Shown piece after piece: positions 1,820 through 32,091 of a stretch of 34,222 bases of DNA. Source of the DNA: Bacteroidales bacterium. GTDB lineage: Bacteria > Bacteroidota > Bacteroidia > Bacteroidales > UBA7960. The first letter of the stretch is position 1, and each line of letters begins with the position of its first letter. A model generated the notes under the pieces. It did not search any database. It saw nothing but the letters and a program-made list of their open reading frames with translations, and was not told where the DNA came from. Where the stretch lies: assembly GCA_007118495.1 (NCBI GenBank), contig SKRM01000032.1, positions 1-34,222 on the forward strand. Direction: 5' to 3'. The position numbers and the translations under genes are program-made.

Positions 1820-4800
1820 TTAGAAATTGAGCTCTAGTGAGAACGTGATGGTTCTGAAGTTGGGGTAGTTGAACATGTCAATAAAGTAGTTGGTTGTATT
1901 TGACTGTCCATAGTCTACCTGGGCAACTTCGGGATCCCATCCGGAATACTTTGAGAAAGTGAGTAAGTTACGACCTATAACACCCAACCTGATGCCTTCC
2001 ATAAATTGGATACCCACATTGCCGAGGGCCTGGCGGTTAAAAGTGTAGTACAGGGATGCTTCCCTGAGTTTTAAATAGGTGCCATCTTCAGCAAAAAAGC
2101 TGTTGGGTTCATTGACCCGGTAAAAGGCAGTATAATAAGACGCCACCTTCTTTTCGTTGGGGGCTTTCCCTGCCTGGTCAAAGTCTCCGTGACGCAGATC
2201 ACGGAACAGCCATTGTTTGGTCTGGTTGTATACATCACCGCCCTGTTTCCAGTGCCAGAGCATATTGAACGTAACTCCCTTGTACCTTATGGTATTGTTC
2301 CAGCTCAGGTTGAAATCAGGGTTCATATCGGCAATTTGCACAAATGCATCCCTGCCATTTTCATCAAGCAATCGGATTGGAGCTTCGTTGACTGTGCCTT
2401 CTGTGCCTGCTCTGATCACGTACCCATCAGCATTAATGGTATAATCTCCAAGGCTGCGGCCGGCAGGCAACTGCTGCGACATTTGTTCCAATGTGCGCAC
2501 CCAGTCACCACCATACATGATTCCGAAAGGTTCTCCTTCACGGATATAGAAAGCCTGCAGCGCGTTAATGGTCGGACCAACCCTGAACGGTGCAGCATCC
2601 AAACGTGTTACCATCTGGCTGATGCGGTCAAAGTTGAAGCCCATTCTCCAACGCAAATCAGGTGTATTGATCAGCATGGCGCCCAAAGATATCTCAAATG
2701 CAGTAGCAGAGATATCTGCCGCATTCTGCCACTGGAATGAAAAGCCTGTAGCAGCTGGTAGCGGCACGTTCAAAAATGCACCTTCGGTTACAATATCTGC
2801 ATAGGTTATTTCCAGGTCAAATATACCCAGGAACTCAGCGTTCAAACCAAACTCCAGCTCCCTTGTTTCACTGGGACGGAGATCTTTGTTCCCAATGGTA
2901 GACTTAGACAGTGACCCACTGGAAACGCTGTAAGTTTCATATTGCCAGTTGAATCCGGGACGCTGTCCTGAAGTACCCAGAGCAGCCCTCAGGCGAAATT
3001 CACTCACACCGGGAATATCAAATTCTTCGGCCACACGCCATGCCCCGGAAATCCGGTAGTAAGGGTTCCAACGGGCGTCTTCACCAAAGAGTGAAGAACC
3101 GTCCATACGGAACAAGGCTGAGATGATGTAACGATCCAGGTAGTCCATGTCGACAATACCGGAATAATTCCTTGACCTCACTGTGGTAGCTGAAGAAGCG
3201 ATCGTCTTACCTCCGGTAACGGCATTCAGTGTGCGTATTCCGCCCACTGCAAGATCTGCACCCTGGATAGAGAAAAACTCAGTTTGAAAATCTTCATACA
3301 GGTATTGCAAACGGCTCCTTACGCTCAGTTCACCAAAATCCTGGTCAAAGTTAGCTGTAAAGCTCAGGTTCTGGCTGACACCCTCACTGCTTGACTTATA
3401 CATCTGTCCGTCTGTGGTGGCTTGCCCGGTGTTAAACCCTTTGGGCCTGAAAGTATTGTTGAAGTTGTTGTAACGTTCATAACTATAGGCTGCGTTAAAT
3501 ACCAGCCAGTCTGTTGCATAGAAGCTTGACTGGATGCTCTGCAGGATATTCCTTCGCTGCAGGTCACGATCCTGATAATGGAGTGCGTGCAATGGGTTGG
3601 CATTGTCACTTTGCCAGTGATTGGCATGGGCATAATATAGTGGCAATGGTTCACCTTCAGGAGCATTCATCAGCAAGTCGGTATCCGGATCAAAAAACAG
3701 CATGTTAAAGAATGCTGAACCCTGTCCACCGCCCCATCCTGTAAGGAAACGACCTTCAGCCATATCAATCTCGGTTTGGGCAATCAATGAAGATGTTGAA
3801 AAAGACAGCCTGTCACCGAACCAGTGGTCGGCGTTCAGCCTGAAATTTCTTCTTACAGAGCCATCAGTACCCCACACAATACCTGAGTTTACAGCGTTCT
3901 CAAATGAGGTAAAGATCCTTGTGCGTCCGGCATTGTGCGCCACTGAGATGTAGTTCGTATAAAACTCGCCATCCAGAAATATAAGATCCTGGTGGTCAGA
4001 AGTTCTGGCAAATGGGTTATCGGCATAGCCATCATACTTCACGGTACGGTTACCCTCAATCCTGCCATCACGTCCACCGGCATACCCATCAGGGTAGGTA
4101 ACTCCTCCGTATTTTGTAAACAGGCTGTATTGCTGCCAGTCAGGTGCCAGGGTAAAAGGATGGCTCATGGATAATGGCACTTTCTTAGGCAACGATGACA
4201 TCCCATACTCATTACGGATGCGTATGGCTGTTGTCCCTTCGCGCGCAATATTGCCTCGTTTGGTAGTGATCACAACAACGCCTGCCCCTGCACGTGATCC
4301 GTACAGAGCAGAAGCTGCTGCACCCTTGACAACCTCTATGTTGGCAATATCGTCAACGTTCACGTCGGCCAGCGAGCCTTCCATCATAACCCCGTCAATA
4401 ATAATCAGAGGTTCGGAGTCACCCAAAAGGTTGGTTGATCCCCTGAGGCGGATACCGGCTGCCTGTCCCGGGTTACCACTGGCCTGAACAACCGTGGCAC
4501 CTGAAACCTTGCCCTGAAGGGCCGATGAGGCTGATGTAGCCGGAACGGCTTCAAGCAGCTCGCTTCCCACCTGATTAACGGTCACACTCATTTTGTTTCT
4601 GGGTGTGGCACCAGCCACGCCGGCTGTGATAACAATCTCCTGCAAAATGGTCACATCTGGTACAAGTACCACATTGATTGTTGTTCGGCCATTCACAGGG
4701 ATTGTCTGAGAAGTCATCCCAATAAAAGTGAACACCAGCGTTGCATCGGGGGCAACTGTCAGCTGGTAACGGCCATCCATGTCCGTTACGGTTCCCAATG

Positions 4801-4945
4801 TGGTTCCCTGAACCGCCACGGTCACACCTGGCAATGTCGCCCCATCCTCTGAACTGGTAACAACTCCGGAAACCCGGATCTGTTGCCCGAATAGGGATCC
4901 ACTCACAAAGAGCAACACCCCCATCAGAATCAGAATTCGCTTCAT
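1820..4945 (-). CDS. SusC/RagA-family TonB-dependent outer-membrane receptor
   Basis: This 1041-residue receptor imports a nutrient across the outer membrane using TonB energy. Residues 1-21 are a signal peptide (cleavage near SLFG-QQ). Residues 23-107 form a carboxypeptidase-regulatory-like domain (GVVTSSEDGATLPGVTV). Residues about 110-230 are the plug, with EPLIIIDGV and IEVVKGAAASALYGSRAG typical of SusC proteins. The rest is a 22-strand-type barrel ending in an aromatic residue (LELNF). Length and domain order match SusC proteins. It is the first gene of a minus-strand operon with the SusD gene 9 bp downstream. It diverges from two SusD-like genes across a 277-bp spacer. The substrate is unknown; no anti-sigma/ECF extension domain is seen at the N-terminus. 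Confidence 0.95.
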   Translation of the reverse strand: MKRILILMGVLLFVSGSLFGQQIRVSGVVTSSEDGATLPGVTVAVQGTTLGTVTDMDGRYQLTVAPDATLVFTFIGMTSQTIPVNGRTTINVVLVPDVTILQEIVITAGVAGATPRNKMSVTVNQVGSELLEAVPATSASSALQGKVSGATVVQASGNPGQAAGIRLRGSTNLLGDSEPLIIIDGVMMEGSLADVNVDDIANIEVVKGAAASALYGSRAGAGVVVITTKRGNIAREGTTAIRIRNEYGMSSLPKKVPLSMSHPFTLAPDWQQYSLFTKYGGVTYPDGYAGGRDGRIEGNRTVKYDGYADNPFARTSDHQDLIFLDGEFYTNYISVAHNAGRTRIFTSFENAVNSGIVWGTDGSVRRNFRLNADHWFGDRLSFSTSSLIAQTEIDMAEGRFLTGWGGGQGSAFFNMLFFDPDTDLLMNAPEGEPLPLYYAHANHWQSDNANPLHALHYQDRDLQRRNILQSIQSSFYATDWLVFNAAYSYERYNNFNNTFRPKGFNTGQATTDGQMYKSSSEGVSQNLSFTANFDQDFGELSVRSRLQYLYEDFQTEFFSIQGADLAVGGIRTLNAVTGGKTIASSATTVRSRNYSGIVDMDYLDRYIISALFRMDGSSLFGEDARWNPYYRISGAWRVAEEFDIPGVSEFRLRAALGTSGQRPGFNWQYETYSVSSGSLSKSTIGNKDLRPSETRELEFGLNAEFLGIFDLEITYADIVTEGAFLNVPLPAATGFSFQWQNAADISATAFEISLGAMLINTPDLRWRMGFNFDRISQMVTRLDAAPFRVGPTINALQAFYIREGEPFGIMYGGDWVRTLEQMSQQLPAGRSLGDYTINADGYVIRAGTEGTVNEAPIRLLDENGRDAFVQIADMNPDFNLSWNNTIRYKGVTFNMLWHWKQGGDVYNQTKQWLFRDLRHGDFDQAGKAPNEKKVASYYTAFYRVNEPNSFFAEDGTYLKLREASLYYTFNRQALGNVGIQFMEGIRLGVIGRNLLTFSKYSGWDPEVAQVDYGQSNTTNYFIDMFNYPNFRTITFSLELNF

Positions 4946-5222: not shown

Positions 5223-6587
5223 ATGCTTAAGAGGGTGATTTTTTCTTTTTTATCTGCAATTTTACTACTAACAAATTCCTGCAGCCTGAATGTTCCCACT
5301 GAAGAACCGGACACAGAAACCGAGATCAGACATAACCTGTCAACCACACAGATGTATATCGCACACTGGCAGGCAAGCGAGTTCGGCTTCTATCAGAACA
5401 TCTGGATGCAGCAGCTATCTGGTGTCAGATCTGGCAGTGTCATGGAAAAGATTGACCGCTATCAGATGGATCCTTTACATACGAATGAAATCTGGGCATT
5501 TTATTTTGAATACTGCCTGCTCGGTCTTGAAACCATCCTTGACCAGGCCAATACACTTGATGCGCACGCTTTCAAGGGCATCGCCAACACGCTTAAGGCA
5601 TACACCATGCTTATGATGACCGACAGTTGGGGAGACATCCCTTTCACCCAGGCACATTTTTATTTTGCGGCAGGACTGCCAGTTTATGACCAGCAGCAGG
5701 ATATCCTCCCTGCCCTGCTTGAAATCCTTGATCTGGCAACTGACCAACTGGAAATGGCCAATGAACCTGGTAGCATGCTACCCGAATCACAAGACGATCT
5801 CATATTTTCCGGTGACCTGGACAAATGGATAAGAACAGCCAATTTGGTCAAGATCAGAATCTTGCTCAGAATGGCCAATAAAGACTCCGATTATTCACAG
5901 GTAAACCAGGCCTTACAGTCACTTCAACTGCTCAGGGACAATGCTGACAATATGTTGTTTCCCTTTAGCGGATCGGGCACTTCGGGCACCAACCCATACT
6001 ACTATTACGATCAGGAAGTACAGCAAAGCCGACTGGGCAGTTTTATTGTCAACCTGCTGAAACAAACTGATGACCCCCGACTTCCGCGATATGTCCGAAA
6101 AAATATTCAGAATGACTATGTAGGCTCAGCACCAGGACAAAGCCTTACCAGTGCTTCGTATATTGGCCCCGGTATTGCATCGGCTACATCCCCGTTAATG
6201 ATGATCACCTTTGCCGAACAAAAGTTCATTGAAGCAGAATTGAACCTGAGGATGGGACAACAGTCGGCTGCCGACCAGGCATTTGCGCAGGCAGTGCGGG
6301 CATCTTTGAACTATATGCAGGTAAGTAACCCAGACTGGGAAACCATTCATGCAGATGTCAACAATGTTGGTTTGGAACAAATCATTACGGCTAAATATAC
6401 TGCCATGTTTCTTCAGCCGGAGGTTTGGTCAGACTACCGAAGGACAGGTTATCCCGCTCTTGAACCCTTTGACGAAAAGACCATTCCCCGCAAGTATATT
6501 TATCCGCAAAATGAAATCAGCGGAAACCAGTCAAACATACCCGACCCCGGTACGATATTTGACAGGGTATGGTGGGACAATGAATAA
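5223..6587 (+). CDS. SusD-like nutrient-binding lipoprotein (first of a tandem pair)
   Basis: This 454-residue lipoprotein resembles the SusD-like_2 branch of SusD/RagB proteins. The signal peptide ends in lipobox LTNSC (Cys20). Shared family features include QQLSGVRSG near residue 65, MMTDSWGDIPFTQA near 140, the TPR-like EAELNLRMGQQSAADQAF, and the C-terminal EVWSDYRRTGYP and FDRVWWD motifs. These motifs recur in the next gene, so the two are tandem paralogues. There is no SusC gene on this strand, and the nearest SusC is divergent and already has its own SusD. The start is the first ATG of the frame and is followed directly by a good signal sequence. The ligand is unknown. Confidence 0.9.
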   Translation: MLKRVIFSFLSAILLLTNSCSLNVPTEEPDTETEIRHNLSTTQMYIAHWQASEFGFYQNIWMQQLSGVRSGSVMEKIDRYQMDPLHTNEIWAFYFEYCLLGLETILDQANTLDAHAFKGIANTLKAYTMLMMTDSWGDIPFTQAHFYFAAGLPVYDQQQDILPALLEILDLATDQLEMANEPGSMLPESQDDLIFSGDLDKWIRTANLVKIRILLRMANKDSDYSQVNQALQSLQLLRDNADNMLFPFSGSGTSGTNPYYYYDQEVQQSRLGSFIVNLLKQTDDPRLPRYVRKNIQNDYVGSAPGQSLTSASYIGPGIASATSPLMMITFAEQKFIEAELNLRMGQQSAADQAFAQAVRASLNYMQVSNPDWETIHADVNNVGLEQIITAKYTAMFLQPEVWSDYRRTGYPALEPFDEKTIPRKYIYPQNEISGNQSNIPDPGTIFDRVWWDNE

Positions 6588-6589
6588 AA

Positions 6590-6606
6590 CACAGTATCTT
6601 TGTGTA
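6590..6606 (+). promoter_or_regulatory. Possible internal promoter before second susD-like gene
   Basis: TATCTTTG at 6595-6602 is an exact TAnnTTTG -7 element. It lies inside a short ACACA...TGTGT inverted repeat (6590-6606), about 62 bp before the second SusD-like start. No convincing TTG element sits 19-21 bp upstream, so it may be weak or regulated. Confidence 0.35.
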
Positions 6607-6663
6607 CCCACTAAACAGTGCGATCAAAACTACATTATGTAAATCAATTATTCAATATTGTCT

Positions 6664-8055
6664 ATGTTTATAAGCAGTTCTTACCGAAAAATATTCTTGG
6701 TTTCTCTGGCGGGCTTATTTCTTTTTTCTGCCTGTCTGGAGATGGATGATCCGGATGTTCTTGACCCTGATAAAGTGCTTGAGGAACTTTTACCCCTTGC
6801 CCAAAGAAACCTGGTCTACTGGAAAACAGCAGACATTGGACGTTACACAGCCATCTGGACACAACAACTGGCAGGTGTAAGAGGCGTTGAAGGAACCATT
6901 GACAGGTATGATCCCCTACCAGTTTCAAGCAACAAAATGTGGTCTGACCATTATAATTACGTCAACTTGTATTTTGAAAATCTGATTTTTTACGCCAATG
7001 AGGCAAATTCAAAAGCCTACAGGGGAATAGGCAGGATATTGCAGGCTTACTCCCTCGGATTGATGACTGATGCTTTTGGACATATCCCATTTTCTGAAGC
7101 TGACAAATATTTGTCAGCACATGAAACCCCATCATACGATGATCAGGAAATGATTCTTTTGCATATTACAGAAATCATGGATGCCGCCATCATAGATCTT
7201 CAAAATGCCATGGATGGCCAGGGAGTTGTACCGGGTCCGGCCCAGGATTTTATTTATGGAGGAGATCTCAATCAATGGATGAAGGCGGCCAGGATGCTCA
7301 AGCTCCGCTATATGACGCGTTTTGCCCATTTTCGGCAAGAATATACTGAGCTTTTTTATGCTTTGCAAGAGCCCGGCCTTTTCATCAGCAATGCCGATAA
7401 CATGACCTATGAACTCCCCGATCCGCTCGGCAGTGAGAACCCTTATTACAATTATGATGAGAAAGTGAGAAACACAAGAATGGGCAAACATTTGGTGGAC
7501 ATGCTCAAGCAAACAAATGACCCGAGACTGCCACGCCTTGTCAGAAAAAACACAAGCAACGAATATATAGGTTCAGCTCCTGGAGAGAGTAATTTCAACG
7601 CATCATTCCCCGGAACGGCAGTAGCCGGCAGACATGCACCAATTGTCCTTCTCTCGTATCCCGAATTAAAATTCTTGCAGGCAGAAGCATCTTACAGGTA
7701 TGGAGAACATGAAATGGCCGACCAGGCCTATGCTGAAGGGGTAAAAGCTTCACTTGAATGGTTCGGGGCTGCTTCAGATCCGGCATGGGAACAAGAAAAT
7801 GTCTATAAAGAAAATGTGACAATCAAGCAAATCATAGAGGCCAAATATATTGCTTTGTTTATGCAGCAAGAAGTTTGGTCAGATTACCGTCGTACCGGTT
7901 ATCCCGAGTTGGTTCCCTTCGAGGATGTTTCTGAAAAAATCCCCCGAAGAAAGCTCTATCCCGAAGATGAATTAACCCACAACCCACATAATGTGTACCA
8001 GGATGAAACTATTTTCAACAGGGTTTGGTGGGATGGCAATCCCGGAGAAATATAA
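6664..8055 (+). CDS. SusD-like nutrient-binding lipoprotein (second of a tandem pair)
   Basis: This 463-residue lipoprotein is a paralogue of the preceding gene and is nearly the same length. The signal peptide ends in lipobox LFSAC (Cys24), followed by LEMDD, an acidic tail consistent with surface export. Shared motifs are QQLAGVRG, LMTDAFGHIPFSEA, NPYYNYDEKVRNTRMGKHL, EVWSDYRRTGYPELVPF and FNRVWWDGN. I chose the ATG at 6664; an in-frame TTG at 6658 would add two residues and is less likely. Nucleotide divergence from its neighbour is substantial, so the duplication is not recent. The pair may serve a SusC encoded elsewhere, or may divide ligands between them. Confidence 0.9.
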   Translation: MFISSSYRKIFLVSLAGLFLFSACLEMDDPDVLDPDKVLEELLPLAQRNLVYWKTADIGRYTAIWTQQLAGVRGVEGTIDRYDPLPVSSNKMWSDHYNYVNLYFENLIFYANEANSKAYRGIGRILQAYSLGLMTDAFGHIPFSEADKYLSAHETPSYDDQEMILLHITEIMDAAIIDLQNAMDGQGVVPGPAQDFIYGGDLNQWMKAARMLKLRYMTRFAHFRQEYTELFYALQEPGLFISNADNMTYELPDPLGSENPYYNYDEKVRNTRMGKHLVDMLKQTNDPRLPRLVRKNTSNEYIGSAPGESNFNASFPGTAVAGRHAPIVLLSYPELKFLQAEASYRYGEHEMADQAYAEGVKASLEWFGAASDPAWEQENVYKENVTIKQIIEAKYIALFMQQEVWSDYRRTGYPELVPFEDVSEKIPRRKLYPEDELTHNPHNVYQDETIFNRVWWDGNPGEI

Positions 8056-15655: not shown

Positions 15656-18538
15656 TCAGGGAATGGACAGGGTGAAAATCAGTTGATACCTGAAGCTCCG
15701 GTCATCAGGGATATAGATTGTTCTCATCCCCAATTCAATGGGAGCTACAGTGTTCAGCACCCTGATATCACTCACCAAATCAACCCCAAGTGAGTTAAGT
15801 TGCCTGGTCCTCTCATAAGGTTCGGCATCCTCAGGCCTGACCGTAAAACGTGCCTGCCCATGGTCAGCAAACAGATTCATATGCAATCTTCTTACATAAA
15901 GAAGCGAGGGAATAACCCATTCAGGGTAACCAATGGGATATGCATAATCTGCTGACAATACCCACAAGTGATCATCATATGAAGCATCGTGGCCCCTTGG
16001 ATAAAGAATCAGGTTTGGGAAAGTATAATTGATCCTGTTTTGTAATGGTTCGCCCCTTAGGTGAGACTGAAATGCTGCCCCCAACCTGAAGCTATGGTGT
16101 CTGGTCAATCCCGGAAAGTAAGAAATAATTCGTCCTGCCAGAACTGATCCCATGTCTGTTCCACCCACTGGTGAATGACGGAACTGAACCTCTGCGGCCT
16201 GTCCCCACCCTGGCCTGATGTCGCGGGCTACTGATCGTACCTGCCAATAGCCAAACAGGCGATATTCCAATGGATATACCCTGTTGGCCTGAAAAAATGC
16301 AGGTGTATCTCTTGAAGATGCAGACATGGTCATACCCAGACGCACTGATGGCCTTAACCCGTAAAAGAATTGTCCACGGGTAAAAGACAAGGGAATGCTG
16401 GCACCCAATTTGAAAACATGCTCACGCCATAAAAAAGCAATAGGCTCATCAGGTTGTTCAGATGTAGTATACCATGATCGGCGCATTCCACTCTGAGCAC
16501 GCATATCCAATTCAGGATACAATCCCATATAGCTGTAATTCAAAAAATAATGGCCCAGCTGGTCATTCATATCCCAGCCATACCCCATGTTTACCACCGA
16601 AGTGCTGAGTACATTTTGTGAAAAAACAGACACCCCGGGATTAATGTCCATATTGTCAAGCTGAAGTGAAAAAGGGGCCCAACTGTGAAAATTGAATAAT
16701 GTGCGCCATTTGCTGTAATCGGTTACCTCATGCTCCTGTCTGGGAATATTACTTTCAGTGACAATTCCACCTTCTTGGTTTGCAAGTATCCTGTACATTG
16801 CCAAAGAATGGTCCTCAACCTTATCAAAAGCTGTATGCCAGCCAAAATCACCTTCATGCATGACTGTTCTGTATCCCTTTACAGAGTAATCAGACCAAAC
16901 AATATGTTCACCACCGGGTGAGGGGATTGCATCAAGGGCACCAAATCGGGAGGAGATCAGTTTGCCTCCCTCTCCCCTTTGGGTATCAAAAAGGTAAATA
17001 TTGTTGATCCCTGAAAAAGCAGCATTAAACAATATCCGGCTGGCATCAAGATAGCGGGGGTTTGATATTTCTGTATGACCGGCATGAAATATGGAATGAA
17101 ATGTTTGTCCGTTTATATGGATGCCTATGATGCTCTTTCCGTCCTCATTCCTTGCCACAGCAATGATACGATCGCCATTGGGGTGCCAGGCGGGTTGCAT
17201 TAGAAAAGCCCGGTCAGGTGTCCACCAGCGATAAAGCGTTTTTCCCGTGTGGGCATCCACTACAACCAGGGCATACCGGTCGTCTGAAGTCACCTCTATG
17301 GCTGCAATCATGCTTCCGTCTGCAGAAACTGCGGGCGAAAAATACCGTGTTCCCCTGGTAAGTTGCCTTTTTTCACCAGATATGGTATGATAAATATGTA
17401 TCTCCGACCAACTTCTGTGGCTCCACCTCGGATCATTTCTTGTTTCTGACCAGGCAATCAGATCGCCACCCATTGAAAACATGTCATGATTATAAAACCC
17501 CGGTGTAAAAAGTAGTTTTTCACTACCATCCAAACCAAGCTCAACAACCCGCGGAATATCCCCCATACCTGTTTTCAATGCAACCACAACCGAATCACAC
17601 CTGAAAGCAAATGCCCTATAATTGGTATATAATTCAACCAAAGGACTTATCCTGACATATGGGGTATATACATGCATAGATGCCTGGTGGGTCCATGCCG
17701 AATCCAACATATTGAATGTCTGATGATAGTGCTCTTTAAGGTTCACATGGCCGTATCGCTTCAACCCCAGTGAAAAGGGAGACAAAGTATAGGGCCGGTG
17801 TGCCACGTGCCCAATAACCTTTTTCCAAAAATCAGGACCATGGGTGAGCCTTGCTGCTGCAACCAGTTGATAGCCCAGTTCATAATAGTTGGGAACATGG
17901 TCTTTGAATGAACCAAGAAACGCCTTTTCATATGGATGTATTCCCACATCCAAAGTCTGCGCCCTCAGCCCCTGTTCAAAAGAAGGTAATCTGCCGCGTC
18001 CGCCATATGTCAGGGCAGTTTCTGCAACTACTGCATCACCTTCAATCATCCATAACGGAACAAATGTAAGAAAGGCTGCTCCGGTTATATGCTCACCGAA
18101 GATGCCCGCTAAAAAACCCGTAACACCCTGGTTGAGCATATCCACCTGAACAACATGCCTGAACTCGTGAACAGCCAGGCGTTCATGCCAGTCGTGAATA
18201 CCATCACCAGGAGGTGGATTTGTGAACAATTCCATGCGTGATGGTGCCCAACTGACAAATCCATTGGGAACAACTGTCTGGTTATGTATTATTACCGATA
18301 CTTGACGGGGTTTAAACCCCATTGATTGGGAGGCTAAAGGGTAGGCGTATTCAAGAACATCTGCGAGGTATGTAGCCCGTTCTGTGTAGTCTTCAGGAAA
18401 AATAAGCCTGAAGTGGGGTGTTTCTATTTGCTTCCATTTTATCCCTGCCGGATCTTGCCCCCAGATAAAATACTGGGAAAAAAGTGGAGATACTGAAAAA
18501 AAAATCAACAACCCTGATATGCATATACCTGCTCTCAT
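15656..18538 (-). CDS. Secreted HExxH metallopeptidase-like protein with beta-propeller and C-terminal barrel
   Basis: 960 residues, no gene name known to me. Residues 1-21 are a signal peptide. Residues about 35-200 form a gluzincin-type zinc-protease domain: HEFRH at 124-128, with a downstream glutamate (WMIEGDAVVAE, Glu166) placed as third zinc ligand. Residues about 320-600 show TolB/WD40-like propeller repeats (FSPAVSADGSMIAAIE, QPAWHPNGDRIIAVARN, DAIPSPGGEHIVWSDY). From about 640 to the end, alternating aromatic and polar strands (YFLNYSYMGLYPELDMRA, FFYGLRPSVRLGMTMSAS) resemble an outer-membrane barrel ending in FTLSIP. The start overlaps the RluA stop by 4 bp (ATGA). It is probably anchored in the outer membrane with the protease part exposed; the target is unknown. 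Confidence 0.8.
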   Translation of the reverse strand: MRAGICISGLLIFFSVSPLFSQYFIWGQDPAGIKWKQIETPHFRLIFPEDYTERATYLADVLEYAYPLASQSMGFKPRQVSVIIHNQTVVPNGFVSWAPSRMELFTNPPPGDGIHDWHERLAVHEFRHVVQVDMLNQGVTGFLAGIFGEHITGAAFLTFVPLWMIEGDAVVAETALTYGGRGRLPSFEQGLRAQTLDVGIHPYEKAFLGSFKDHVPNYYELGYQLVAAARLTHGPDFWKKVIGHVAHRPYTLSPFSLGLKRYGHVNLKEHYHQTFNMLDSAWTHQASMHVYTPYVRISPLVELYTNYRAFAFRCDSVVVALKTGMGDIPRVVELGLDGSEKLLFTPGFYNHDMFSMGGDLIAWSETRNDPRWSHRSWSEIHIYHTISGEKRQLTRGTRYFSPAVSADGSMIAAIEVTSDDRYALVVVDAHTGKTLYRWWTPDRAFLMQPAWHPNGDRIIAVARNEDGKSIIGIHINGQTFHSIFHAGHTEISNPRYLDASRILFNAAFSGINNIYLFDTQRGEGGKLISSRFGALDAIPSPGGEHIVWSDYSVKGYRTVMHEGDFGWHTAFDKVEDHSLAMYRILANQEGGIVTESNIPRQEHEVTDYSKWRTLFNFHSWAPFSLQLDNMDINPGVSVFSQNVLSTSVVNMGYGWDMNDQLGHYFLNYSYMGLYPELDMRAQSGMRRSWYTTSEQPDEPIAFLWREHVFKLGASIPLSFTRGQFFYGLRPSVRLGMTMSASSRDTPAFFQANRVYPLEYRLFGYWQVRSVARDIRPGWGQAAEVQFRHSPVGGTDMGSVLAGRIISYFPGLTRHHSFRLGAAFQSHLRGEPLQNRINYTFPNLILYPRGHDASYDDHLWVLSADYAYPIGYPEWVIPSLLYVRRLHMNLFADHGQARFTVRPEDAEPYERTRQLNSLGVDLVSDIRVLNTVAPIELGMRTIYIPDDRSFRYQLIFTLSIP

Positions 18539-20734: not shown

Positions 20735-20788
20735 AATAATTCATGCGATTGTACGTAACTTCGCATGAAAATAATTCATGTACTTTTG
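20735..20788 (+). promoter_or_regulatory. Promoter with inverted and direct repeats upstream of amgK-rapZC-like gene
   Basis: TACTTTTG at 20781-20788 is an exact TAnnTTTG, about 20 bp before the ATG. Upstream are a 9-bp inverted repeat, TTCATGCGA (20740-20748) and TCGCATGAA (20761-20769), and an 11-bp direct repeat, AATAATTCATG, at 20735-20745 and 20770-20780. The related AATAATCCA occurs at 20680-20688 and again at 20790-20798. This is a probable operator cluster. Confidence 0.5.
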
Positions 20789-20808
20789 TAAATAATCCAG
20801 ACCTCATT

Positions 20809-22254
20809 ATGCAGTGGAGTGTTGAAAAAGTAATTCGGGAACTGTTCACCAATTGGTATGGCTCCGCCCCCCAACACATGGTTCAATTGCCTCCGTCAGG
20901 GTCAAACCGCCAATATTTCAGGTTATCGGCAAATGACGTATCGGTCATAGCCGCTTTCAATCCTGATAAAAGAGAGAATTTGGCTTTTCTAAAACTAACG
21001 CGATACTTCAAAAGCCTGCAACTTCCCGTACCTGAGGTTCTTGCAGAAGAGACCGATAAACATTGCTACCTTCTCACAGATTTGGGGGATACCACCCTTT
21101 TTTCCTTATTATCCAGACATAGAACACCTGAAGGTTTTGACACGCACATCATGGCTCTCTACAAAAAAGCCATTGAACTGCTGCCGGTATTTCAGGTTGA
21201 CGCAGCCAGAATCATCGATTTCAATATATGCTATCCAAGGCATGCCTTTGACCGGCATTCAATGATGTGGGATCTGAATTATTTCAAATATTATTTTCTG
21301 AAAATATCCGGGGTATACTTCGACGAACAACTGTTAGAAGATGATTTTGAGCGATTTACAGAAAATCTGCTCCGCATCCCCGGTGCCTATTTCATGTACC
21401 GCGATTTTCAGTCGCGCAATATCATGGTCACTGAAGGAGAGGTTTATTTTATTGATTATCAAGGCGGTCGCAAAGGACCCCTGGGGTATGATATGGCCTC
21501 TTTGTTGTTTGATGCCAAGGCAAATATCCCTTTCGGGCAGCGTGACGAAATGCTGACATATTACATGGATTGCATTGAAAAAAAGGTTTCGCTTGACAGG
21601 CAGGCATTCAAAAGGTCATTTTATGATCTGGTGCTTATGCGAATACTTCAGGCGCTGGGTACTTACGGCTTCCGTGGAGGTGTTGAGAAAAAATCCCTTT
21701 TCCTCCAAAGTGTTCCATATGCCCTGAGAAACCTCAGATGGCTCATCGAACAGGAATTAATCCTTTCTGACACACCCCACCTGGCCAGCATCCTCAGAAA
21801 CCTGGCCGATACAGCGCCCGATGAAGTCTTACCAACTCAACAACCGGGGCTTACCGTTAGTATTTGCAGCTTCTCATACAAGCAGGGCATCCCCTCAGAT
21901 AATGCGGGAAACGGTGGGGGCTTTGTATTCGACTGCCGGTCACTCCCCAATCCGGGGCGTCAGGAGGCTTATAGCAATCTCACAGGCCAGGATACTGGCG
22001 TTATTTCTTATTTGCAAGATAAACAACAGGTGAACCGTTTTCTTGAAAACGCCCTCAATATGGTTACTCCTGCCATTGAAAATTACCTTGAGAGGGGCTT
22101 TAACAATCTGGTCGTTTGTTTTGGTTGTACAGGGGGTCAACATCGATCAGTTTATTGCGCAGAGCACCTTGGCCGTATCCTGAAACACCGTTACCCGATC
22201 AATATTCAACTCAGGCACTTTGCCGAGAACAACTGGCCTGAAAAGCCAACTTAG
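20809..22254 (+). CDS. AmgK-like amino-sugar kinase fused to RapZ C-terminal domain
   Basis: 481 residues from ATG 20809; an in-frame ATG at 20743 would start upstream of the predicted promoter. Residues about 5-330 are an aminoglycoside-phosphotransferase-type kinase: YRDFQSRNIMV (catalytic Asp199, Asn204) and FIDYQGGRKGPLGYDMASLL (metal Asp216). This wording is close to AmgK, which phosphorylates MurNAc/GlcNAc at the anomeric carbon. Residues about 350-475 match the RapZ C-terminal domain: SFSYKQGIPSD, VFDCRSLPNP, LTGQDTGV, and VVCFGCTGGQHRSVYCAEHL. RapZ's N-terminal P-loop ATPase is absent. In E. coli that C-terminal domain binds glucosamine-6-phosphate and RNA. A MurU-like gene follows after 10 bp, supporting amino-sugar recycling. 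Function is inferred. Confidence 0.88.
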   Translation: MQWSVEKVIRELFTNWYGSAPQHMVQLPPSGSNRQYFRLSANDVSVIAAFNPDKRENLAFLKLTRYFKSLQLPVPEVLAEETDKHCYLLTDLGDTTLFSLLSRHRTPEGFDTHIMALYKKAIELLPVFQVDAARIIDFNICYPRHAFDRHSMMWDLNYFKYYFLKISGVYFDEQLLEDDFERFTENLLRIPGAYFMYRDFQSRNIMVTEGEVYFIDYQGGRKGPLGYDMASLLFDAKANIPFGQRDEMLTYYMDCIEKKVSLDRQAFKRSFYDLVLMRILQALGTYGFRGGVEKKSLFLQSVPYALRNLRWLIEQELILSDTPHLASILRNLADTAPDEVLPTQQPGLTVSICSFSYKQGIPSDNAGNGGGFVFDCRSLPNPGRQEAYSNLTGQDTGVISYLQDKQQVNRFLENALNMVTPAIENYLERGFNNLVVCFGCTGGQHRSVYCAEHLGRILKHRYPINIQLRHFAENNWPEKPT

Positions 22255-22264
22255 AACCTTGCTT

Positions 22265-23005
22265 ATGCGCGCCATGATATTGGCTGCCGGAAAAGGCAGC
22301 CGCCTGAAGCCAATCACCGATAAAATTCCCAAGGCACTGGTGCCCATTGCAGGCAGGCCCTTGCTGGTGTGGGCAGCAGAAAAACTTATTGCAGCAGGTG
22401 TAAACAGCATTGTGGTGAATGTTCACCATCATGCCGGTCAATTAAAACATTTTATCAGCGAACTTGATTATCCGGGCATAGAGTTTAAGGTTTCGGATGA
22501 ATCAGGTTCACTACTTGATACCGGCGGGGCCATTATGCATGCCAAACACCTGCTTGACAACAGAGAGCCATTCTATGTATACAACGCAGATGTTGTTTCT
22601 GACATCGACCTGCGCGCCATGTTCAACACCCACAAACGTTCGGGTGCACTGGTAACCCTTGCCGTGACTTCACGAAAATCATCACGGTACTTTTTGTGGC
22701 AAAATGGGCAGTTGTGTGGGTGGAAAAATGAGCTGACCGGTCAATCAATCATAACCCGCAATAATGCTTTTACTGATTGTATTCCCATGGCCTTCAGTGG
22801 CATCCATATTATCGATCCGAAAATTTTTACACTCACAGCTAAAACAGGAAGCTTCCCAATCAATGAATTATATCTTGAACTTGCAGCCAGTGAGCATATT
22901 GCACCATTTGCGCATAGCAAACAATTCTGGGCCGATACCGGAACCCCTGAAAAGCTGATGCAGGCTGAAAAAATGCTCAGGAACAACCGTATGAAATTCA
23001 TTTGA
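22265..23005 (+). CDS. MurU/GlmU-like sugar-1-phosphate nucleotidyltransferase
   Basis: 246 residues. It would join a sugar-1-phosphate to a nucleoside triphosphate. The signature AMILAAGKGSRLKPITDKIPK is at the N-terminus. VYNADVVSDIDL carries the metal Asp, and WADTGTPEKLMQAE closes the site. There is no left-handed helix domain as in GlmU, and the size matches MurU, which makes UDP-MurNAc. Placed 10 bp after an AmgK-like kinase, the likely reaction is the second step of anomeric MurNAc/GlcNAc salvage; mannose-1-phosphate or another sugar is possible. I chose ATG 22265; an upstream in-frame start at 22220 would overlap the previous gene. Confidence 0.88.
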   Translation: MRAMILAAGKGSRLKPITDKIPKALVPIAGRPLLVWAAEKLIAAGVNSIVVNVHHHAGQLKHFISELDYPGIEFKVSDESGSLLDTGGAIMHAKHLLDNREPFYVYNADVVSDIDLRAMFNTHKRSGALVTLAVTSRKSSRYFLWQNGQLCGWKNELTGQSIITRNNAFTDCIPMAFSGIHIIDPKIFTLTAKTGSFPINELYLELAASEHIAPFAHSKQFWADTGTPEKLMQAEKMLRNNRMKFI

Positions 23006-23027
23006 AAAGTGTATATTGGTGGGTAAT

Positions 23028-25940
23028 ATGGTACAACCATCCATGCAGACATTCCTTGAAGATATTGCTGATCACATTATCAATACCTATGCCGGTAAAA
23101 CCGGTGACATATGCATTGTCACGCCAAACCGCAGGGCCGGACTTTTCTTTCGTAAATACTTTGCAGCCAGGGTTCAGGGTCCTGTGTGGGCACCTGAGAT
23201 GCTCAGTATTGAAGATTTTATAAACCGTCTTTCGGGCCTCACCATATGTGATAGCCTTGATTTGATTTTTGAGCTATACGAATGCTATAAGTCAATTGAA
23301 GGAGACAATGCCGAAAGCATTGAAAGCTTTCTGAACTGGGCTCCGGCGTTATTGCGTGATTTTGATGACATTGACAGCAGCCTCATTGACAGAAAAGATA
23401 TTTACGGAGATATACGCGATTTCAGGCATATGGATTTGTGGGTACCCGGAGAAAATGACCTGACCCCTTTTCAAAGGCAATACCTCAGATTCATTGACCG
23501 CATGCAGGTTTATCACGATTCACTGACCCAACGCCTGTTAGAGAAAAGAATGGGCTGGCAGGGCCTGTCAACAAACCTTGTTGCCAATCAACTAAAAGCA
23601 GGCAAGCTTGCAATGCCGTGGGAAAAGATGATTTTCACGGGTTTCAATGCACTTACGGGAGCAGAAGAATCCATTGTAAAACAATTGCTTTCAGAGGACA
23701 GGGCCGAATACCTCGTGGATGATGATCCATATTATGCTGATGACCTCCAACATGAAGCAGGTCGCTTTATACGCAAGTATAAAAAGGTATTTCACATTGA
23801 AAAAAAAGGGAGCAATCACCAGAGCCATTTCAAGGCAAAGAAAAAAAAGATCAGAATCTATGGTATTGCAAAAAATGTAAATCAGGCCAGGCTTGCCGGC
23901 AATCTGTTTTTATCTGACGCGGATACTCCACAAGATGAAAGAACTGCCATTGTGCTGGCCAATGAGGCCTTGCTCATACCAACACTGAACTCATTGCCTG
24001 AATCAATAAAGGATATCAACGTCACCATGGGGTATCCCTTGTCAAACACAAATATGTTCGGGTTTTTTGATGCCATATTTCAACTGTTCATGCAAGCCAT
24101 TCATGAACAGCCAGCAAAAGGACCTCAGCCAACCACATACCACTACCTTGACCTGCAGCGGTTTTTTTCACACAGTAGTGTGGCTCTGTTATGGGATATG
24201 GATATGGGTGAAGAACTTTGTCTGAACTTCTTGCAAAAGCTTCGACAAGGTAATCAGTCTTTCCTTTCATATGCTGACATATTTGCATTGACTGATCACC
24301 ACAAAGGGTTCAAGCAAAAATTTGGCTTTCTTGCCAGTGAATGGTCTGAAAATCCCGGTAGTATTTTCGATGCCTTTCTTCATCTGGCCGGAGAACTTGA
24401 CTCACTATTCCGTGAAAAGGCAGCACTGTTTGGCGGAGATATTATCAGAACACCTTTTTTTGCTGACTTTGAGTCACTTTACTATTTTTCAAGGCTATTC
24501 AGAAAACTTAAAACGTTTTGCAACAAGTTCTCTTTCCTGGCGTCCATAAAAACCCTCTACCGTTTATTCAGGCAATCGGCCAATGAAACAAGACTTTCAT
24601 TTTCGGGCGAACCTTTGCAGGGCTTGCAGTTGATGGGGTTATTAGAAACCAGGATTCTTGACTTCAGGCATGTGGTTATTCTGTCTGCCAATGAAAATAT
24701 ATTGCCAAGGTCATCAGCAAGCAGTTCATTCATACCTTACGAGGTAAAGCGCAGCAGGGGTTTGCGTGTTTATCATGATCAGGATGCCATGTATGCATAT
24801 CATTTTTACCGCTTGCTTCAAAGAGCTGATAACATTACCATCCTGTACAATACACAGACCGAGGAAATGGGAAGCAATGAAAAAAGCCGGTATATCACAC
24901 AGTTGCTCCATGAACTGCCAGACTTTAACCCAGACATTTCAATCACCGAAAATATCGTTTCATTGCAACCAATTCCGGGACAGAAAAAATCCGGACTGAA
25001 GGTCACCAAAACACCAGATATTCTAAATAGATTGGGAGAAATGGCCCAAAACGGGTTTTCCCCTTCAGCCCTGAGCAACTACATCACCTGCCCGCTGCAA
25101 TTTTACCTGAAGAGGGTCGCCCGGATTGATGAGGCAGATTCCGTTGAAGAAACCATGGAGGCAATGACTGTTGGAAATATCGCTCATGGCGTGCTTGAAG
25201 CACTGTATCAGCCACACCTTGGCAGTGTTCTTCAGCCAATGCATGTTGAAAAGATGCAGAAAGAACTTGCTGACCAGCTTGCTGTTCAGCTAGAAAAAAT
25301 TTATCCCGGAGGTCATATAACAAGTGGTAAGAATTTGCTTACAAAGCACCTTATCTGCCGCTATTTAGAAAATTTTCTTCATGCTGAATCAATTAAGCTC
25401 AAAAAACTGGAGGCTGCAAACGAATACCTGACCATTGAGGGTCTTGAAACACAACTTTCAACCACCCTTATACTTGACAATGACAACGGGAATCAAATGG
25501 AGGTTGTGGTTAAAGGTAAGGCCGACCGAATTGACAGAACTGGTCATGTTGTCAGCATACTCGACTACAAAACCGGGAAGGTTGAAAGCAGCGAGCTGTC
25601 ATTCAATGACTGGGATGACCCTTTTTCCAATATAAAAAAAATCAAGAGTTTTCAGTTGCTGACTTATGCCTGGCTTTATTACAGGGTACACCCGGAAACA
25701 CATTTGGCAGTGCCTGGTATCATTTCACTCAGAAGCCCCGGCAAGGGAATTCAAAACCTGAAAATCCAGGGGGCAAACGGCGATATTACAAAAGACAGTC
25801 TGCACGAATTTGAGGCCAGGCTAAAAGTACTCCTGAAAGAGATTATGGATCCGGCTGTTGAATTTAACCAAACTGACCAGATGAGTAACTGCAAATACTG
25901 TCCTTTCATTAATCTCTGCTCAAGGCATGAGTCAACATAA
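23028..25940 (+). CDS. AddB-like PD-(D/E)XK nuclease, helicase-nuclease subunit
   Basis: About 970 residues. It resembles the AddB subunit of AddAB, which processes double-strand breaks for recombination. The N-terminal helicase-like region (CIVTPNRRAGLFFRKYF) lacks a Walker A lysine, as in Bacteroidota AddB forms. The C-terminus has the nuclease core KGKADRID...SILDYKTGK and four iron-sulfur cysteines: one in YITCPLQFYLKR (about 688) and three in CKYCPFINLC (about 955-964). Starts at TTG 23016, ATG 23028 and ATG 23043 are all in frame; family alignment (MQTFLEDIADHI) slightly favours 23043. addA is not in the window. It lies 22 bp after the MurU-like gene, and its 3' end is 16 bp from convergent alaS. 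Confidence 0.87.
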   Translation: MVQPSMQTFLEDIADHIINTYAGKTGDICIVTPNRRAGLFFRKYFAARVQGPVWAPEMLSIEDFINRLSGLTICDSLDLIFELYECYKSIEGDNAESIESFLNWAPALLRDFDDIDSSLIDRKDIYGDIRDFRHMDLWVPGENDLTPFQRQYLRFIDRMQVYHDSLTQRLLEKRMGWQGLSTNLVANQLKAGKLAMPWEKMIFTGFNALTGAEESIVKQLLSEDRAEYLVDDDPYYADDLQHEAGRFIRKYKKVFHIEKKGSNHQSHFKAKKKKIRIYGIAKNVNQARLAGNLFLSDADTPQDERTAIVLANEALLIPTLNSLPESIKDINVTMGYPLSNTNMFGFFDAIFQLFMQAIHEQPAKGPQPTTYHYLDLQRFFSHSSVALLWDMDMGEELCLNFLQKLRQGNQSFLSYADIFALTDHHKGFKQKFGFLASEWSENPGSIFDAFLHLAGELDSLFREKAALFGGDIIRTPFFADFESLYYFSRLFRKLKTFCNKFSFLASIKTLYRLFRQSANETRLSFSGEPLQGLQLMGLLETRILDFRHVVILSANENILPRSSASSSFIPYEVKRSRGLRVYHDQDAMYAYHFYRLLQRADNITILYNTQTEEMGSNEKSRYITQLLHELPDFNPDISITENIVSLQPIPGQKKSGLKVTKTPDILNRLGEMAQNGFSPSALSNYITCPLQFYLKRVARIDEADSVEETMEAMTVGNIAHGVLEALYQPHLGSVLQPMHVEKMQKELADQLAVQLEKIYPGGHITSGKNLLTKHLICRYLENFLHAESIKLKKLEAANEYLTIEGLETQLSTTLILDNDNGNQMEVVVKGKADRIDRTGHVVSILDYKTGKVESSELSFNDWDDPFSNIKKIKSFQLLTYAWLYYRVHPETHLAVPGIISLRSPGKGIQNLKIQGANGDITKDSLHEFEARLKVLLKEIMDPAVEFNQTDQMSNCKYCPFINLCSRHEST

Positions 25941-30150: not shown

Positions 30151-32091
30151 ATGTGTAAACCTATGGTTGCAAAACTCAAGAAAAAACTGCACGAATCCAA
30201 AAGCGCCAGGTGGGGCGTACTGATCCTCGCCAGCTTTGCGATGGCCACCAATTATTATTTTTATGATGCCCTTGCTCCCCTGGCCGACCTCATAAGGATG
30301 AACCTGGGTTTCACCTCAACCGAATATGGGTTTTTCGTATCAGCCTATTCAATACCCAATGTATTTCTGGCCATGGCCGTACTGGGGGGGATCATTCTCG
30401 ACAGGATAGGGATACGGATCACCGGATTTTCATTCATATTTCTCATGGCAATCGGTGGGACCATCACCGCCTATGGTGCATCAGAATCATTTCTTAGCGG
30501 TGGGTTCGGTTACAATTTCATGAACTCGTTCCTGACCAGCTACTCGCCTGCCCTCAAAATGATGTCCCTCGGGTTCTTCGTTTTTGGACTTGGAGCTGAA
30601 ACAAGCATCGTGGTCCTTTCAAAAATTATTGTGAAATGGTTTAAAGGAAAGGAACTAGCCCTGGCCCTCGGTCTGAATCTGGCCATCGGTCGTCTTGGGG
30701 CAGCCCTTGCATTTACCCTTTCTCCGAGACTGATCTATCCTGAATGGACTTTTGCCATTTGGTTTGGCGTATTATTACTTTGGGTGGGTCTGATTGCATT
30801 TATGTTTTACATGTTGCTTGATGTAAAAATAGACCGCCAGGTAGAGATTGACCTGAAAGATCCCGAAGACGAATTCAGGTGGAGCGACCTGAAAGACCTG
30901 GTAACCAATCGATCAGTAATTTACATAACATTGCTTTGTGTAACTTTTTACTCAGCAGTATTCCCCTTTCTGAAGTTTGCACCTGACCTGCTCATGAATA
31001 AGTTCTCCATGCCCAGAGCCCTGGCCGGTGACGTAACCTCTTACCTGATGTATGGAACAATTTTGCTGACACCCTTGTTCGGTTGGATTGCTGACAATAA
31101 GGGTAAGAGTGCCACGCTGATGTATCTGGGGTCGGCACTGCTTATTGTGGCCCATCTGCTTTTTGCCAAAACTTATATTGAGCCGCGTATTCCCATTATA
31201 CTGCTTGGAATTGCCTTTTCTCTGGTTCCGGCGGCCATGTGGCCGGCTGTTACAAAAATTGTACGTCAAAGCAAACTTGGAACAGCTTACGGTTTTATGT
31301 TCTCGGTGCAAAACATCGGTCTGTGGATCTTCCCCATATTGATCGGTTGGGTTGTCGATACTTCGAATCCTTTCTACCGTACAGAAATAGATAGCGAAGC
31401 ATTCAGGACAATACAACAGGAAAATATGGAATACAGGGGGACTTATCTGAACAGACACAGCGAGCCCAACACGGATATGGCCATTCATATTAACAGCTCC
31501 ATTTATGACACCGAAAAAGAGGGTGTCATATGGCGTGAAGTCCATATGGTCACAACAGGAAGTGAAGGTGAATTCACCCTGCAACTGGGTCACGGTGATA
31601 TTATTTCATCCGTTGATTTTACAAGCCTTGTTTCTGACAAACAATACATGGCACAAATTACGGTAACAAGGAGAAATGAAGAACTGATACTTTTCCAGGA
31701 TGCATTTATGGTTGATGCTTCAGGCTATTTCAATGCCCGGGTATCATCACGTTACCAGCACCTTTTCGGGCAAACCTTAAGAGGGAGCGTATCACTCACC
31801 GAGGCCCTTACCGGAGAAAGGGTATGGCTTGAAAACTTCAGATTTTACCTGAACGATGACGGAAGTTTTGAAATCCCCATGGGTTATGGACGCCTGGCTT
31901 ATGCCAATCCGGCATACTTCAGGTTAGACCATGGCACGCTTTCGGCTGAAGTGATCAAGCCACTTGACTATACCAATGCCATGCTGGTATTTTCTCTATT
32001 GGGTTTTGCCGGTTTAATCTTTGCATTCTTGCTAAAGCGAGAAGATAAAACTTCCGGTTACGGGCTGGAATTGCCAAACAAGGATACGTAA
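30151..32091 (+). CDS. MFS transporter with a large periplasmic insert between helices 11 and 12
   Basis: 646 residues, long for this family (about 400-450 usual). Helices 1-11 span about 21-401, with MFS motif A loops at GGIILDRIGIRITG and GWIADNKGKS. Helix 12 (about 608-628) comes only after an extra roughly 200-residue stretch (403-606). Odd-to-even loops in MFS proteins face the periplasm, so this insert should be outside the inner membrane. It is hydrophilic and looks beta-rich. The substrate is unknown. ATG 30151 and 30163 are both possible starts. hldD follows 5 bp later and is probably co-transcribed. The merR-like gene is 66 bp upstream with a hairpin between. Confidence 0.88.
   Translation: MCKPMVAKLKKKLHESKSARWGVLILASFAMATNYYFYDALAPLADLIRMNLGFTSTEYGFFVSAYSIPNVFLAMAVLGGIILDRIGIRITGFSFIFLMAIGGTITAYGASESFLSGGFGYNFMNSFLTSYSPALKMMSLGFFVFGLGAETSIVVLSKIIVKWFKGKELALALGLNLAIGRLGAALAFTLSPRLIYPEWTFAIWFGVLLLWVGLIAFMFYMLLDVKIDRQVEIDLKDPEDEFRWSDLKDLVTNRSVIYITLLCVTFYSAVFPFLKFAPDLLMNKFSMPRALAGDVTSYLMYGTILLTPLFGWIADNKGKSATLMYLGSALLIVAHLLFAKTYIEPRIPIILLGIAFSLVPAAMWPAVTKIVRQSKLGTAYGFMFSVQNIGLWIFPILIGWVVDTSNPFYRTEIDSEAFRTIQQENMEYRGTYLNRHSEPNTDMAIHINSSIYDTEKEGVIWREVHMVTTGSEGEFTLQLGHGDIISSVDFTSLVSDKQYMAQITVTRRNEELILFQDAFMVDASGYFNARVSSRYQHLFGQTLRGSVSLTEALTGERVWLENFRFYLNDDGSFEIPMGYGRLAYANPAYFRLDHGTLSAEVIKPLDYTNAMLVFSLLGFAGLIFAFLLKREDKTSGYGLELPNKDT

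What the first reader, a model, noticed from the sequence alone, without database searches (positions are those of the whole stretch)
20809..23005. Amino-sugar kinase fused to a RapZ sensor domain, in operon with a MurU-like enzyme
One polypeptide joins an AmgK-like kinase (YRDFQSRN, IDYQGGRKGPLGYDMASL) to the RapZ C-terminal domain (GCTGGQHRSVY), and a MurU-like nucleotidyltransferase follows after 10 bp. In E. coli, RapZ's C-terminal domain binds glucosamine-6-phosphate and small RNA GlmZ, controlling GlmS. In Pseudomonas, AmgK and MurU bypass de novo UDP-MurNAc synthesis. The fusion suggests a salvage kinase gated by amino-sugar phosphate levels, or an RNA-binding kinase. The RapZ P-loop half is replaced by the kinase.
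Basis: partly seen in the sequence, partly recalled or inferred. Interest (0 to 1): 0.72.

Follow-up and report, generated by a model that had tools for sequence, protein, structure and literature searches.

The report
Cell-wall-sugar salvage kinase with RapZ domain
One bacterial protein joins a kinase that probably recycles a cell-wall sugar to a domain known from an E. coli regulator, and that domain carries a loop typical of phosphatases, so it may be an unrecognised enzyme in cell-wall recycling.

Summary
The gene at 20809-22254 encodes an APH/AmgK-like kinase fused to a RapZ C-terminal domain; a MurU-like gene follows after 10 bp. It is no oddity: 24 of 198 genomes of the phylum carry RapZ-C (20 fused, 3 split in one operon, 1 apart), and titles of named relatives span seven phylum-level groups.

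The salvage role is well supported: in a 246-genome class draw RapZ-C is in 16 of 20 genomes lacking MurQ, but 10 of 226 with it. A GlcN6P sensor is not shown: pocket residue H190 is Gly in 107 of 107 salvage-type loci (His/Tyr in 18 of 18 canonical RapZ).

New point: the conserved CTGGxHRS loop is a C-X5-R-S signature, the oxyanion loop of protein tyrosine phosphatases. In E. coli the same Cys is essential, even against Ser. The window's genome has AnmK, lacks MurQ, and its only PGP-like HAD hit is a YjjG nucleotidase. I propose that RapZ-C is the missing MurNAc-6P phosphatase feeding the kinase (0.4), against a sensor or gate (0.37). Against it: many RapZ-C genomes lack AnmK, and some have strong PGP-like HADs.

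The parts
20809..22254 (+). AmgK-like kinase / RapZ-C fusion CDS (longest ORF starts at 20743)
   Evidence: Met23 (20809) invariant in 18 of 18 aligned fusions
20818..21753 (+). APH-fold kinase domain
   Evidence: 3csv Z 29.7, rmsd 2.6, 308 aligned
21397..21420 (+). kinase catalytic loop YRDFQSRN; D221 and N226 invariant, and D238 (21454-21456)
   Evidence: 18 of 18; catalytic roles recalled from APH kinases
21850..22218 (+). RapZ C-terminal domain
   Evidence: 5o5s Z 20.2, rmsd 1.5, 122 aligned
21901..21924 (+). GNGGGF insertion of about five residues, found in the salvage-type RapZ-C and not in canonical RapZ
   Evidence: scored in 106 of 107 and 0 of 18
21949..21960 (+). NPGR: Gly405 stands where E. 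coli RapZ has His190, followed by Arg/Lys
   Evidence: 107 of 107 Gly; 18 of 18 canonical His/Tyr
22126..22149 (+). CTGGQHRS (Cys462-Ser469), C-X5-R-S oxyanion loop equal to E. coli RapZ C247-S254
   Evidence: strand 455-462, loop, helix from 468 in the model
22265..23005 (+). MurU-like sugar-1-phosphate uridylyltransferase
   Evidence: same-strand neighbour in 61 of 80 named loci and 18 of 24 phylum loci
20781..20788 (+). TACTTTTG, resembles the Bacteroidota -7 box TAnnTTTG (consensus recalled), 20 bp before the 20809 start
   Evidence: consensus from memory, not tested against chance

Best explanation
This is a two-gene peptidoglycan-salvage operon. The kinase half puts phosphate on C1 of MurNAc (and perhaps GlcNAc), and the MurU-like enzyme turns MurNAc-1P into UDP-MurNAc, standing in for the MurQ route. 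The RapZ-C half binds an amino-sugar 6-phosphate in its C-X5-R-S loop and, as my committed reading, removes that phosphate with Cys462 as nucleophile. It would make MurNAc from the MurNAc-6P that AnmK produces and hand it to the kinase, the role of the HAD phosphatase MupP in Pseudomonas. Shown here: domains, operon, conservation, profile. Inferred: the kinase substrate, and that RapZ-C hydrolyses rather than only binds.
For: Salvage module: the AmgK and MurU models are the kinase's and the uridylyltransferase's best NCBIfam leads. MurU-like is the same-strand neighbour in 61 of 80 named loci and 18 of 24 phylum loci. In the class draw (n=246) RapZ-C is in 16 of 20 MurQ-lacking and 10 of 226 MurQ-bearing genomes (Fisher p 4e-15, relatedness not corrected). 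Phosphatase: (1) genomes that make MurNAc-6P (AnmK+) but lack MurQ need a phosphatase for AmgK to work; 8 of 8 in the phylum draw and 12 of 15 in the class draw have RapZ-C, 16 of 19 in the union; of AnmK+ MurQ+ genomes 9 of 128 and 7 of 221 have it. (2) The window's genome has AnmK beside MurF, no MurQ, and one PGP-like HAD hit, a YjjG nucleotidase. Of 23 AnmK+ MurQ- RapZ-C+ genomes put to that search, three (G550, G420, G500) have no PGP-like hit at E 1e-5, against 0 of 27 AnmK+ MurQ+ genomes without RapZ-C. (3) C-X5-R-S in 79 of 80 named loci and 24 of 24 phylum loci. In E. coli the site binds malonate/sulphate through H190, H252, R253 and the backbone of T248 and G249; C247S and C247A kill function; the authors suggest the SH may be catalytic and report a 'chemically transformed' ligand. 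(4) RapZ-C exists unfused: split operons in G012, G095, G031, and unlinked in G180, which is AnmK+ MurQ-. (5) 43 genomes with the kinase (42 of them weak matches) but no RapZ-C all lack AnmK.
Against: RapZ-C often occurs without AnmK: 7 of 24 (phylum), 7 of 26 (class; in the window's own order 7 of 9), 15 of 50 named genomes. Where both AnmK and MurQ are missing (6 phylum genomes; 4 in the class draw: G448, G469, G487, G504) no source of MurNAc-6P is visible. 20 of the 23 AnmK+ MurQ- RapZ-C+ genomes have some PGP-like HAD, up to E 4e-46 (G244). Of 18 named genomes titled Acidobacteria or Elusimicrobia (Sulfotelmatobacter and Terracidiphilus counted in), 16 have MurQ beside the fusion. Points 1 and 5 would also follow if only the kinase mattered, and 42 of the 43 genomes in point 5 belong to one family. 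No PTP structure was listed as a fold match; the listed fold is RapZ, then weakly PFK and P-loop kinases. E. coli RapZ-C is a sensor, and the tested pocket and C247 variants also lose RNA binding.
Confidence: 0.4

Rival explanations
1. RapZ-C is an allosteric sensor: it binds an amino-sugar 6-phosphate (GlcN6P, GlcNAc-6P or MurNAc-6P) and turns the fused kinase up or down, dividing MurNAc between salvage and breakdown.
For: E. coli RapZ-CTD binds GlcN6P (KD 10 nM) and RapZ acts as the sensor; the oxyanion loop is kept; it fits RapZ-C genomes without AnmK and those with MurQ.
Against: H190, needed in E. coli, is Gly in 107 of 107; RapZ-C persists as a separate, even unlinked, gene, which does not favour gating in cis; the Cys is kept in 80 of 80 named loci, which a pure sensor does not obviously need.
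Confidence: 0.37
2. RapZ-C makes the kinase an RNA-binding protein, as RapZ binds GlmZ/GlmY.
For: RapZ-CTD binds RNA alone in E. coli, through the same pocket.
Against: The basic residues K270/K281/R282/K283 are not conserved; Khan 2020 says the RNA-binding domain is restricted to Enterobacteriaceae; no Rfam family reaches its gathering score in the window (the rest of the genome was not searched).
Confidence: 0.05
3. The kinase half acts on another small molecule, and the operon has nothing to do with MurNAc.
For: Scores lie far below the AmgK and MurU equivalog cut-offs (58.8 of 550; 134.9 of 250); the APH fold serves many substrates.
Against: Strong inverse link with MurQ in two draws that share some genomes; pairing with a MurU-like gene in 61 of 80; T. 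forsythia AmgK/MurU, from the same phylum, were expressed in E. coli and let it take up MurNAc probes, though whether that AmgK is a fusion was not checked.
Confidence: 0.1

Closest known systems
Pseudomonas anabolic recycling: AnmK - MupP - AmgK - MurU
   Same: AmgK-like kinase next to a MurU-like uridylyltransferase; found mostly where MurQ is missing in the class draw; AnmK often present
   Different: The one PGP-like HAD hit in the window's genome is a YjjG nucleotidase; RapZ-C is fused to the kinase; sequences fall far below the AmgK and MurU model cut-offs
E. coli RapZ (YhbJ), C-terminal domain
   Same: Fold (Z 20) and the CTGGxHRS oxyanion loop
   Different: No adenylate-kinase-like N-terminal half; H190 is Gly; GGG insertion; no conserved basic RNA-binding tail; separate clade; coexists with canonical RapZ in 3 of 99 genomes of the G227 phylum draw
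Protein tyrosine phosphatases (C-X5-R-[ST] P-loop)
   Same: Signature, with Cys at a strand end and Arg at the start of a helix (PTP features recalled)
   Different: No PTP fold match was listed; no activity known

Membership tests
AmgK (NCBIfam NF045759 / NF045698) | Curated whole-protein score cut-off | tested here: not met
   58.8 of 550 and 42.3 of 500 bits
AmgK | Catalytic Asp and Asn of the APH fold | tested here: met
   D221, N226, D238 invariant in 18 of 18; roles recalled
AmgK | Beside murU, and present where MurQ is missing | tested here: met
   61 of 80 named loci; RapZ-C 16 of 20 against 10 of 226; exceptions exist both ways
AmgK | MurNAc/GlcNAc 1-kinase activity | not testable with these tools
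   needs an assay
MurU (NF045761) | Curated score cut-off | tested here: not met
   134.9 of 250 bits, best of 40 families
RapZ | RapZ C-terminal domain PF22740 | tested here: met
   116.9 bits against cut-off 27
RapZ | Curated RapZ equivalog cut-off (NF003828) | tested here: not met
   107 of 244 bits, residues 352-492 only
RapZ | N-terminal P-loop domain PF03668 | tested here: not met
   0 matches in the genome
RapZ | Full sulphate/malonate (putative GlcN6P) pocket H190, T248, G249, H252, R253 | tested here: not met
   4 of 5 kept; H190 is Gly in 107 of 107 loci
Cys-based (PTP-type) phosphatase | C-X5-R-[ST] loop | tested here: met
   79 of 80 named loci, 24 of 24 phylum loci
Cys-based (PTP-type) phosphatase | PTP fold | tested here: inconclusive
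   no PTP among listed rows
MupP | HAD family phosphatase | tested here: not met
   only APH and PapZ_C domains found
MupP (role) | Co-occurs with AmgK and AnmK, absent where MurQ is the route | tested here: inconclusive
   16 of 19 AnmK+ MurQ- genomes have RapZ-C, but 7 of 24 and 7 of 26 RapZ-C genomes lack AnmK

The most novel reading that the evidence does not exclude
The RapZ C-terminal domain is an unrecognised Cys-based sugar phosphatase. In the salvage subfamily it is the non-HAD MurNAc-6-phosphate phosphatase missing from many Bacteroidota, fused to the kinase that uses its product; in E. coli RapZ the same active site was reused as the GlcN6P sensor and RNA-binding pocket, which would explain why C247S is dead and why the crystal ligand looked altered.
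Probability: 0.33. Interest if true: 0.85.

Novelty: new variant of a known kind. Interest (0 to 1): 0.62.

Why it matters
It would fill a step in how many bacteria of the phylum recycle their wall (from MurNAc-6P back to UDP-MurNAc, the precursor pool whose de novo synthesis fosfomycin blocks). It also suggests what chemistry lies behind the sensor domain of the E. coli regulator RapZ, whose authors reported an unexpected need for its cysteine. Both can be tested with one purified protein and one Cys-to-Ser mutant.

Tried and rejected
PTP homology by fold: for the RapZ-C model Foldseek reports 308 matches at E up to 10, and the 17 at E up to 0.001 are all RapZ chains. The 50 VIA-align rows shown hold five RapZ entries (Z 18-20) and then, at Z 5.2-6.3, mostly polynucleotide kinases, PFK, PFKFB and methyltransferases. 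No PTP is among the rows shown; this excludes nothing, but no fold-level claim is made, only a local signature.

A simple 'RapZ-C follows AnmK' rule was rejected: 7 of 24, 7 of 26 and 15 of 50 RapZ-C genomes lack AnmK.

'The fusion replaces RapZ' was rejected for the phylum of G227 (the genome of L068, titled Acidobacteriaceae): in 3 of 99 genomes (G227, G312, G321) a canonical RapZ frame (308-331 aa) and a salvage-type fusion frame (482-580 aa) coexist.

A HAD MupP could not be sought directly, because no MupP model or sequence was at hand. TIGR01449 stood in for it; how strongly true MupP scores on it was not tested (all 14 control genomes ring). Other phosphatase families were not searched. 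MurK, MurA/MurB and GlmS were not searched in the genome. Whether T. forsythia AmgK is a fusion could not be checked: PMC9464701 and PMC10941766 (references 56 and 55) are not held.

The defence-system library gave nothing for either protein. The promoter scan found 7 sites against 5.2 expected in shuffles and says nothing.

Literature: searches for RapZ with phosphotransferase/Bacteroidetes/fused, with AmgK, and with 'protein tyrosine phosphatase' found 0 papers. Searches found RapZ papers, of which I saw the listings and abstract starts (one search listed 20 of 29). Library: open-licence PMC only, so absence there is not absence in print.

Full report
WHAT IS THERE. The window holds a two-gene operon on the + strand: a 503-codon ORF (20743-22254; start most likely 20809) and a MurU-like gene (22265-23005), 10 bp apart. 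Pfam finds APH at residues 52-269 and the RapZ C-terminal domain at 371-492, both over cut-off. Structure prediction gives two confident domains (mean pLDDT 86.1). The kinase part best matches 3csv (Z 29.7, 308 aligned, rmsd 2.6), and the RapZ-C part, modelled alone at pLDDT 94.5, matches E. coli RapZ-CTD 5o5s (Z 20.2, 122 aligned, rmsd 1.5). The genome has no match to the RapZ N-terminal domain.

HOW COMMON. In 198 genomes of the phylum, 24 have RapZ-C. Twenty are fused; in three (G012, G095, G031) kinase, RapZ-C and MurU-like are separate neighbours; in G180 RapZ-C stands alone and a kinase of the same family lies on another contig. G031 and G124 belong to one genus, one split and one fused, and in G031 the two genes lie in one frame with a stop between them, so the domains can part recently and survive. 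By script, the MurU-like gene is the same-strand neighbour (start within 800 bp of the end of the fusion) in 61 of 80 named loci and 18 of 24 phylum loci; two of the 19 named misses have under 320 bp of sequence left, and the six phylum misses about 1.5 kb. Apart from the fusion and the MurU-like gene, no neighbour cluster is in more than 10 of the 80 loci.

A SEPARATE SUBFAMILY OF RapZ-C. I compared 107 salvage-type loci (24 + 80 + 3) with 18 canonical RapZ (17 from the G227 phylum draw, and E. coli). At least three of the 107 repeat others: L007 is the window itself, L151 lies in the genome of L068, and L004 and L057 lie on contigs of equal length with the same MurQ match. The residue at E. 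coli H190 is Gly in 107 of 107 and His (12) or Tyr (6) in 18 of 18. The GGG insertion was scored in 106 of 107 and 0 of 18; the one miss is L027. A tree of 38 domains separates the two groups on one branch with 100/100 support. In three genomes of the G227 draw both kinds coexist.

THE C-X5-R-S LOOP. It is kept in 79 of 80 named loci, L084 having His for Arg, and in 24 of 24 phylum loci. In the model a strand ends at Cys462 and a helix starts at Arg468, the arrangement a PTP loop has (recalled). Passages of Gonzalez 2017 (PMC5737377) say that this site in E. [quoted passage not shown] The words phosphatase and tyrosine have 0 occurrences in that paper's main text, and no held paper joins RapZ with 'protein tyrosine phosphatase'.

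PATHWAY PROFILE. [quoted passage not shown] I asked the same here. MurQ was called present at best E of 3e-51 or lower in the phylum draw (all others were 5e-12 or weaker) and at 1e-30 in the class draw; AnmK at 1e-3 and 1e-10. Phylum draw (n=198): 136 AnmK+, of which 8 lack MurQ, and all 8 have RapZ-C; of the 128 with MurQ, 9 have it. Class draw (n=246): 236 AnmK+; 15 lack MurQ, 12 of these have RapZ-C; of 221 with MurQ, 7 have it. The exceptions G503, G510 and G511 are 98, 96 and 96% complete, and their families f67, f78 and f83 have other members with MurQ, so an assembly gap is possible. Nine RapZ-C genomes occur in both draws. Fisher p values (1e-8 and 4e-13) ignore relatedness; the eight phylum cases fall in six families (f1, f3, f4, f15, f33, f40). 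All 24 RapZ-C genomes have the kinase (E 3e-75 or better); 43 genomes have the kinase alone (42 from one family, f17, all weak matches at 3e-44 to 1e-20, plus G009 at 5e-106), and none of the 43 has AnmK. Of these 43 I looked at the surroundings of two (L129, L131): in both a MurU-like gene follows directly.

THE WINDOW'S OWN GENOME. AnmK lies 6 bp after murF. MurQ is absent. The only PGP-like HAD hit at E 1e-5 is a YjjG-type nucleotidase over its own cut-off (215 bits, cut-off 159.9). Of the 23 AnmK+ MurQ- RapZ-C+ genomes put to that search, three others had no hit and several had strong ones (G087 8e-45, G244 4e-46); all 27 AnmK+ MurQ+ genomes without RapZ-C had one. So the lack of a HAD candidate holds for a few genomes and not for most.

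AGAINST. RapZ-C is kept in many genomes without AnmK: 7 of 24, 7 of 26 and 15 of 50 (one of the 15, G223, appears to be G156 of the phylum draw again), among them the isolates Alkalitalea saponilacus and Labilibaculum filiforme. In the window's order 9 of 11 genomes have RapZ-C and 7 of those 9 lack AnmK. Some of these have MurQ, which itself needs MurNAc-6P, so another source (for instance a MurK kinase as in T. forsythia) may exist; I did not search for it. Among the 50 named genomes AnmK and MurQ are present together in 28. For these the sensor reading is the easier one.

VERDICT. Observation confirmed. Salvage operon likely (about 0.8 by my judgement). Role of RapZ-C open between phosphatase (0.4) and sensor (0.37); RNA binding unlikely (0.05). 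The curated cut-offs for RapZ, AmgK and MurU are not met, so it is called 'like' these, not a member. Solved structures, kinetics and in vivo data are all still to be had.

OTHER PAPERS. PMC7073468 (Khan 2020; passages): GlcN6P binding by the CTD, RNA-binding domain limited to Enterobacteriaceae. PMC7199280 (Khan and Gorke 2020; first part of two). PMC7670621 (passages): T. forsythia AmgK/MurU and MurK/MurQ branches. PMC13046382 (passages): MurU pathway in Caulobacter. PMC13041923 (passages): E. coli expressing T. forsythia AmgK and MurU.

Noticed in passing
L156:1669-4092 (G000:C13): anmK follows murF after 6 bp, so UDP-MurNAc use and anhydroMurNAc recycling share a locus in this genome.
   Followed up: partly
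L131:1471-3464 and 42 genomes of family f17: A weaker relative of the kinase without RapZ-C, in genomes without AnmK or strong MurQ matches; in L131, the only f17 locus looked at, it sits directly before a longer (320 aa) MurU-like gene.
   Followed up: partly
window 15656-18538 (-): 960-aa protein with no Pfam match but a HEFRH (HExxH-like) stretch; a metalloprotease-like envelope protein is a guess.
   Followed up: no
window 23016-25940 (+): AddB-like PD-(D/E)XK protein 10 bp after MurU; a cluster that looks like it by eye lies near the fusion in 10 of 80 named loci.
   Followed up: no
window 5223-8055 (+): Two SusD-like genes in tandem (the first by Pfam; the second by eye). The nearest SusC-like ORF, 1820-4945, is on the other strand and has its own SusD at 188-1810.
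   Followed up: no
L084:35-1480: A fusion with CTGGQHHS, the P-loop Arg changed to His; the only one of 80, perhaps a sequencing error.
   Followed up: no
window 30151-32091 (+): MFS transporter of 646 aa with Pfam MFS_1 only over residues 28-395; a long extra stretch of unknown role follows.
   Followed up: no
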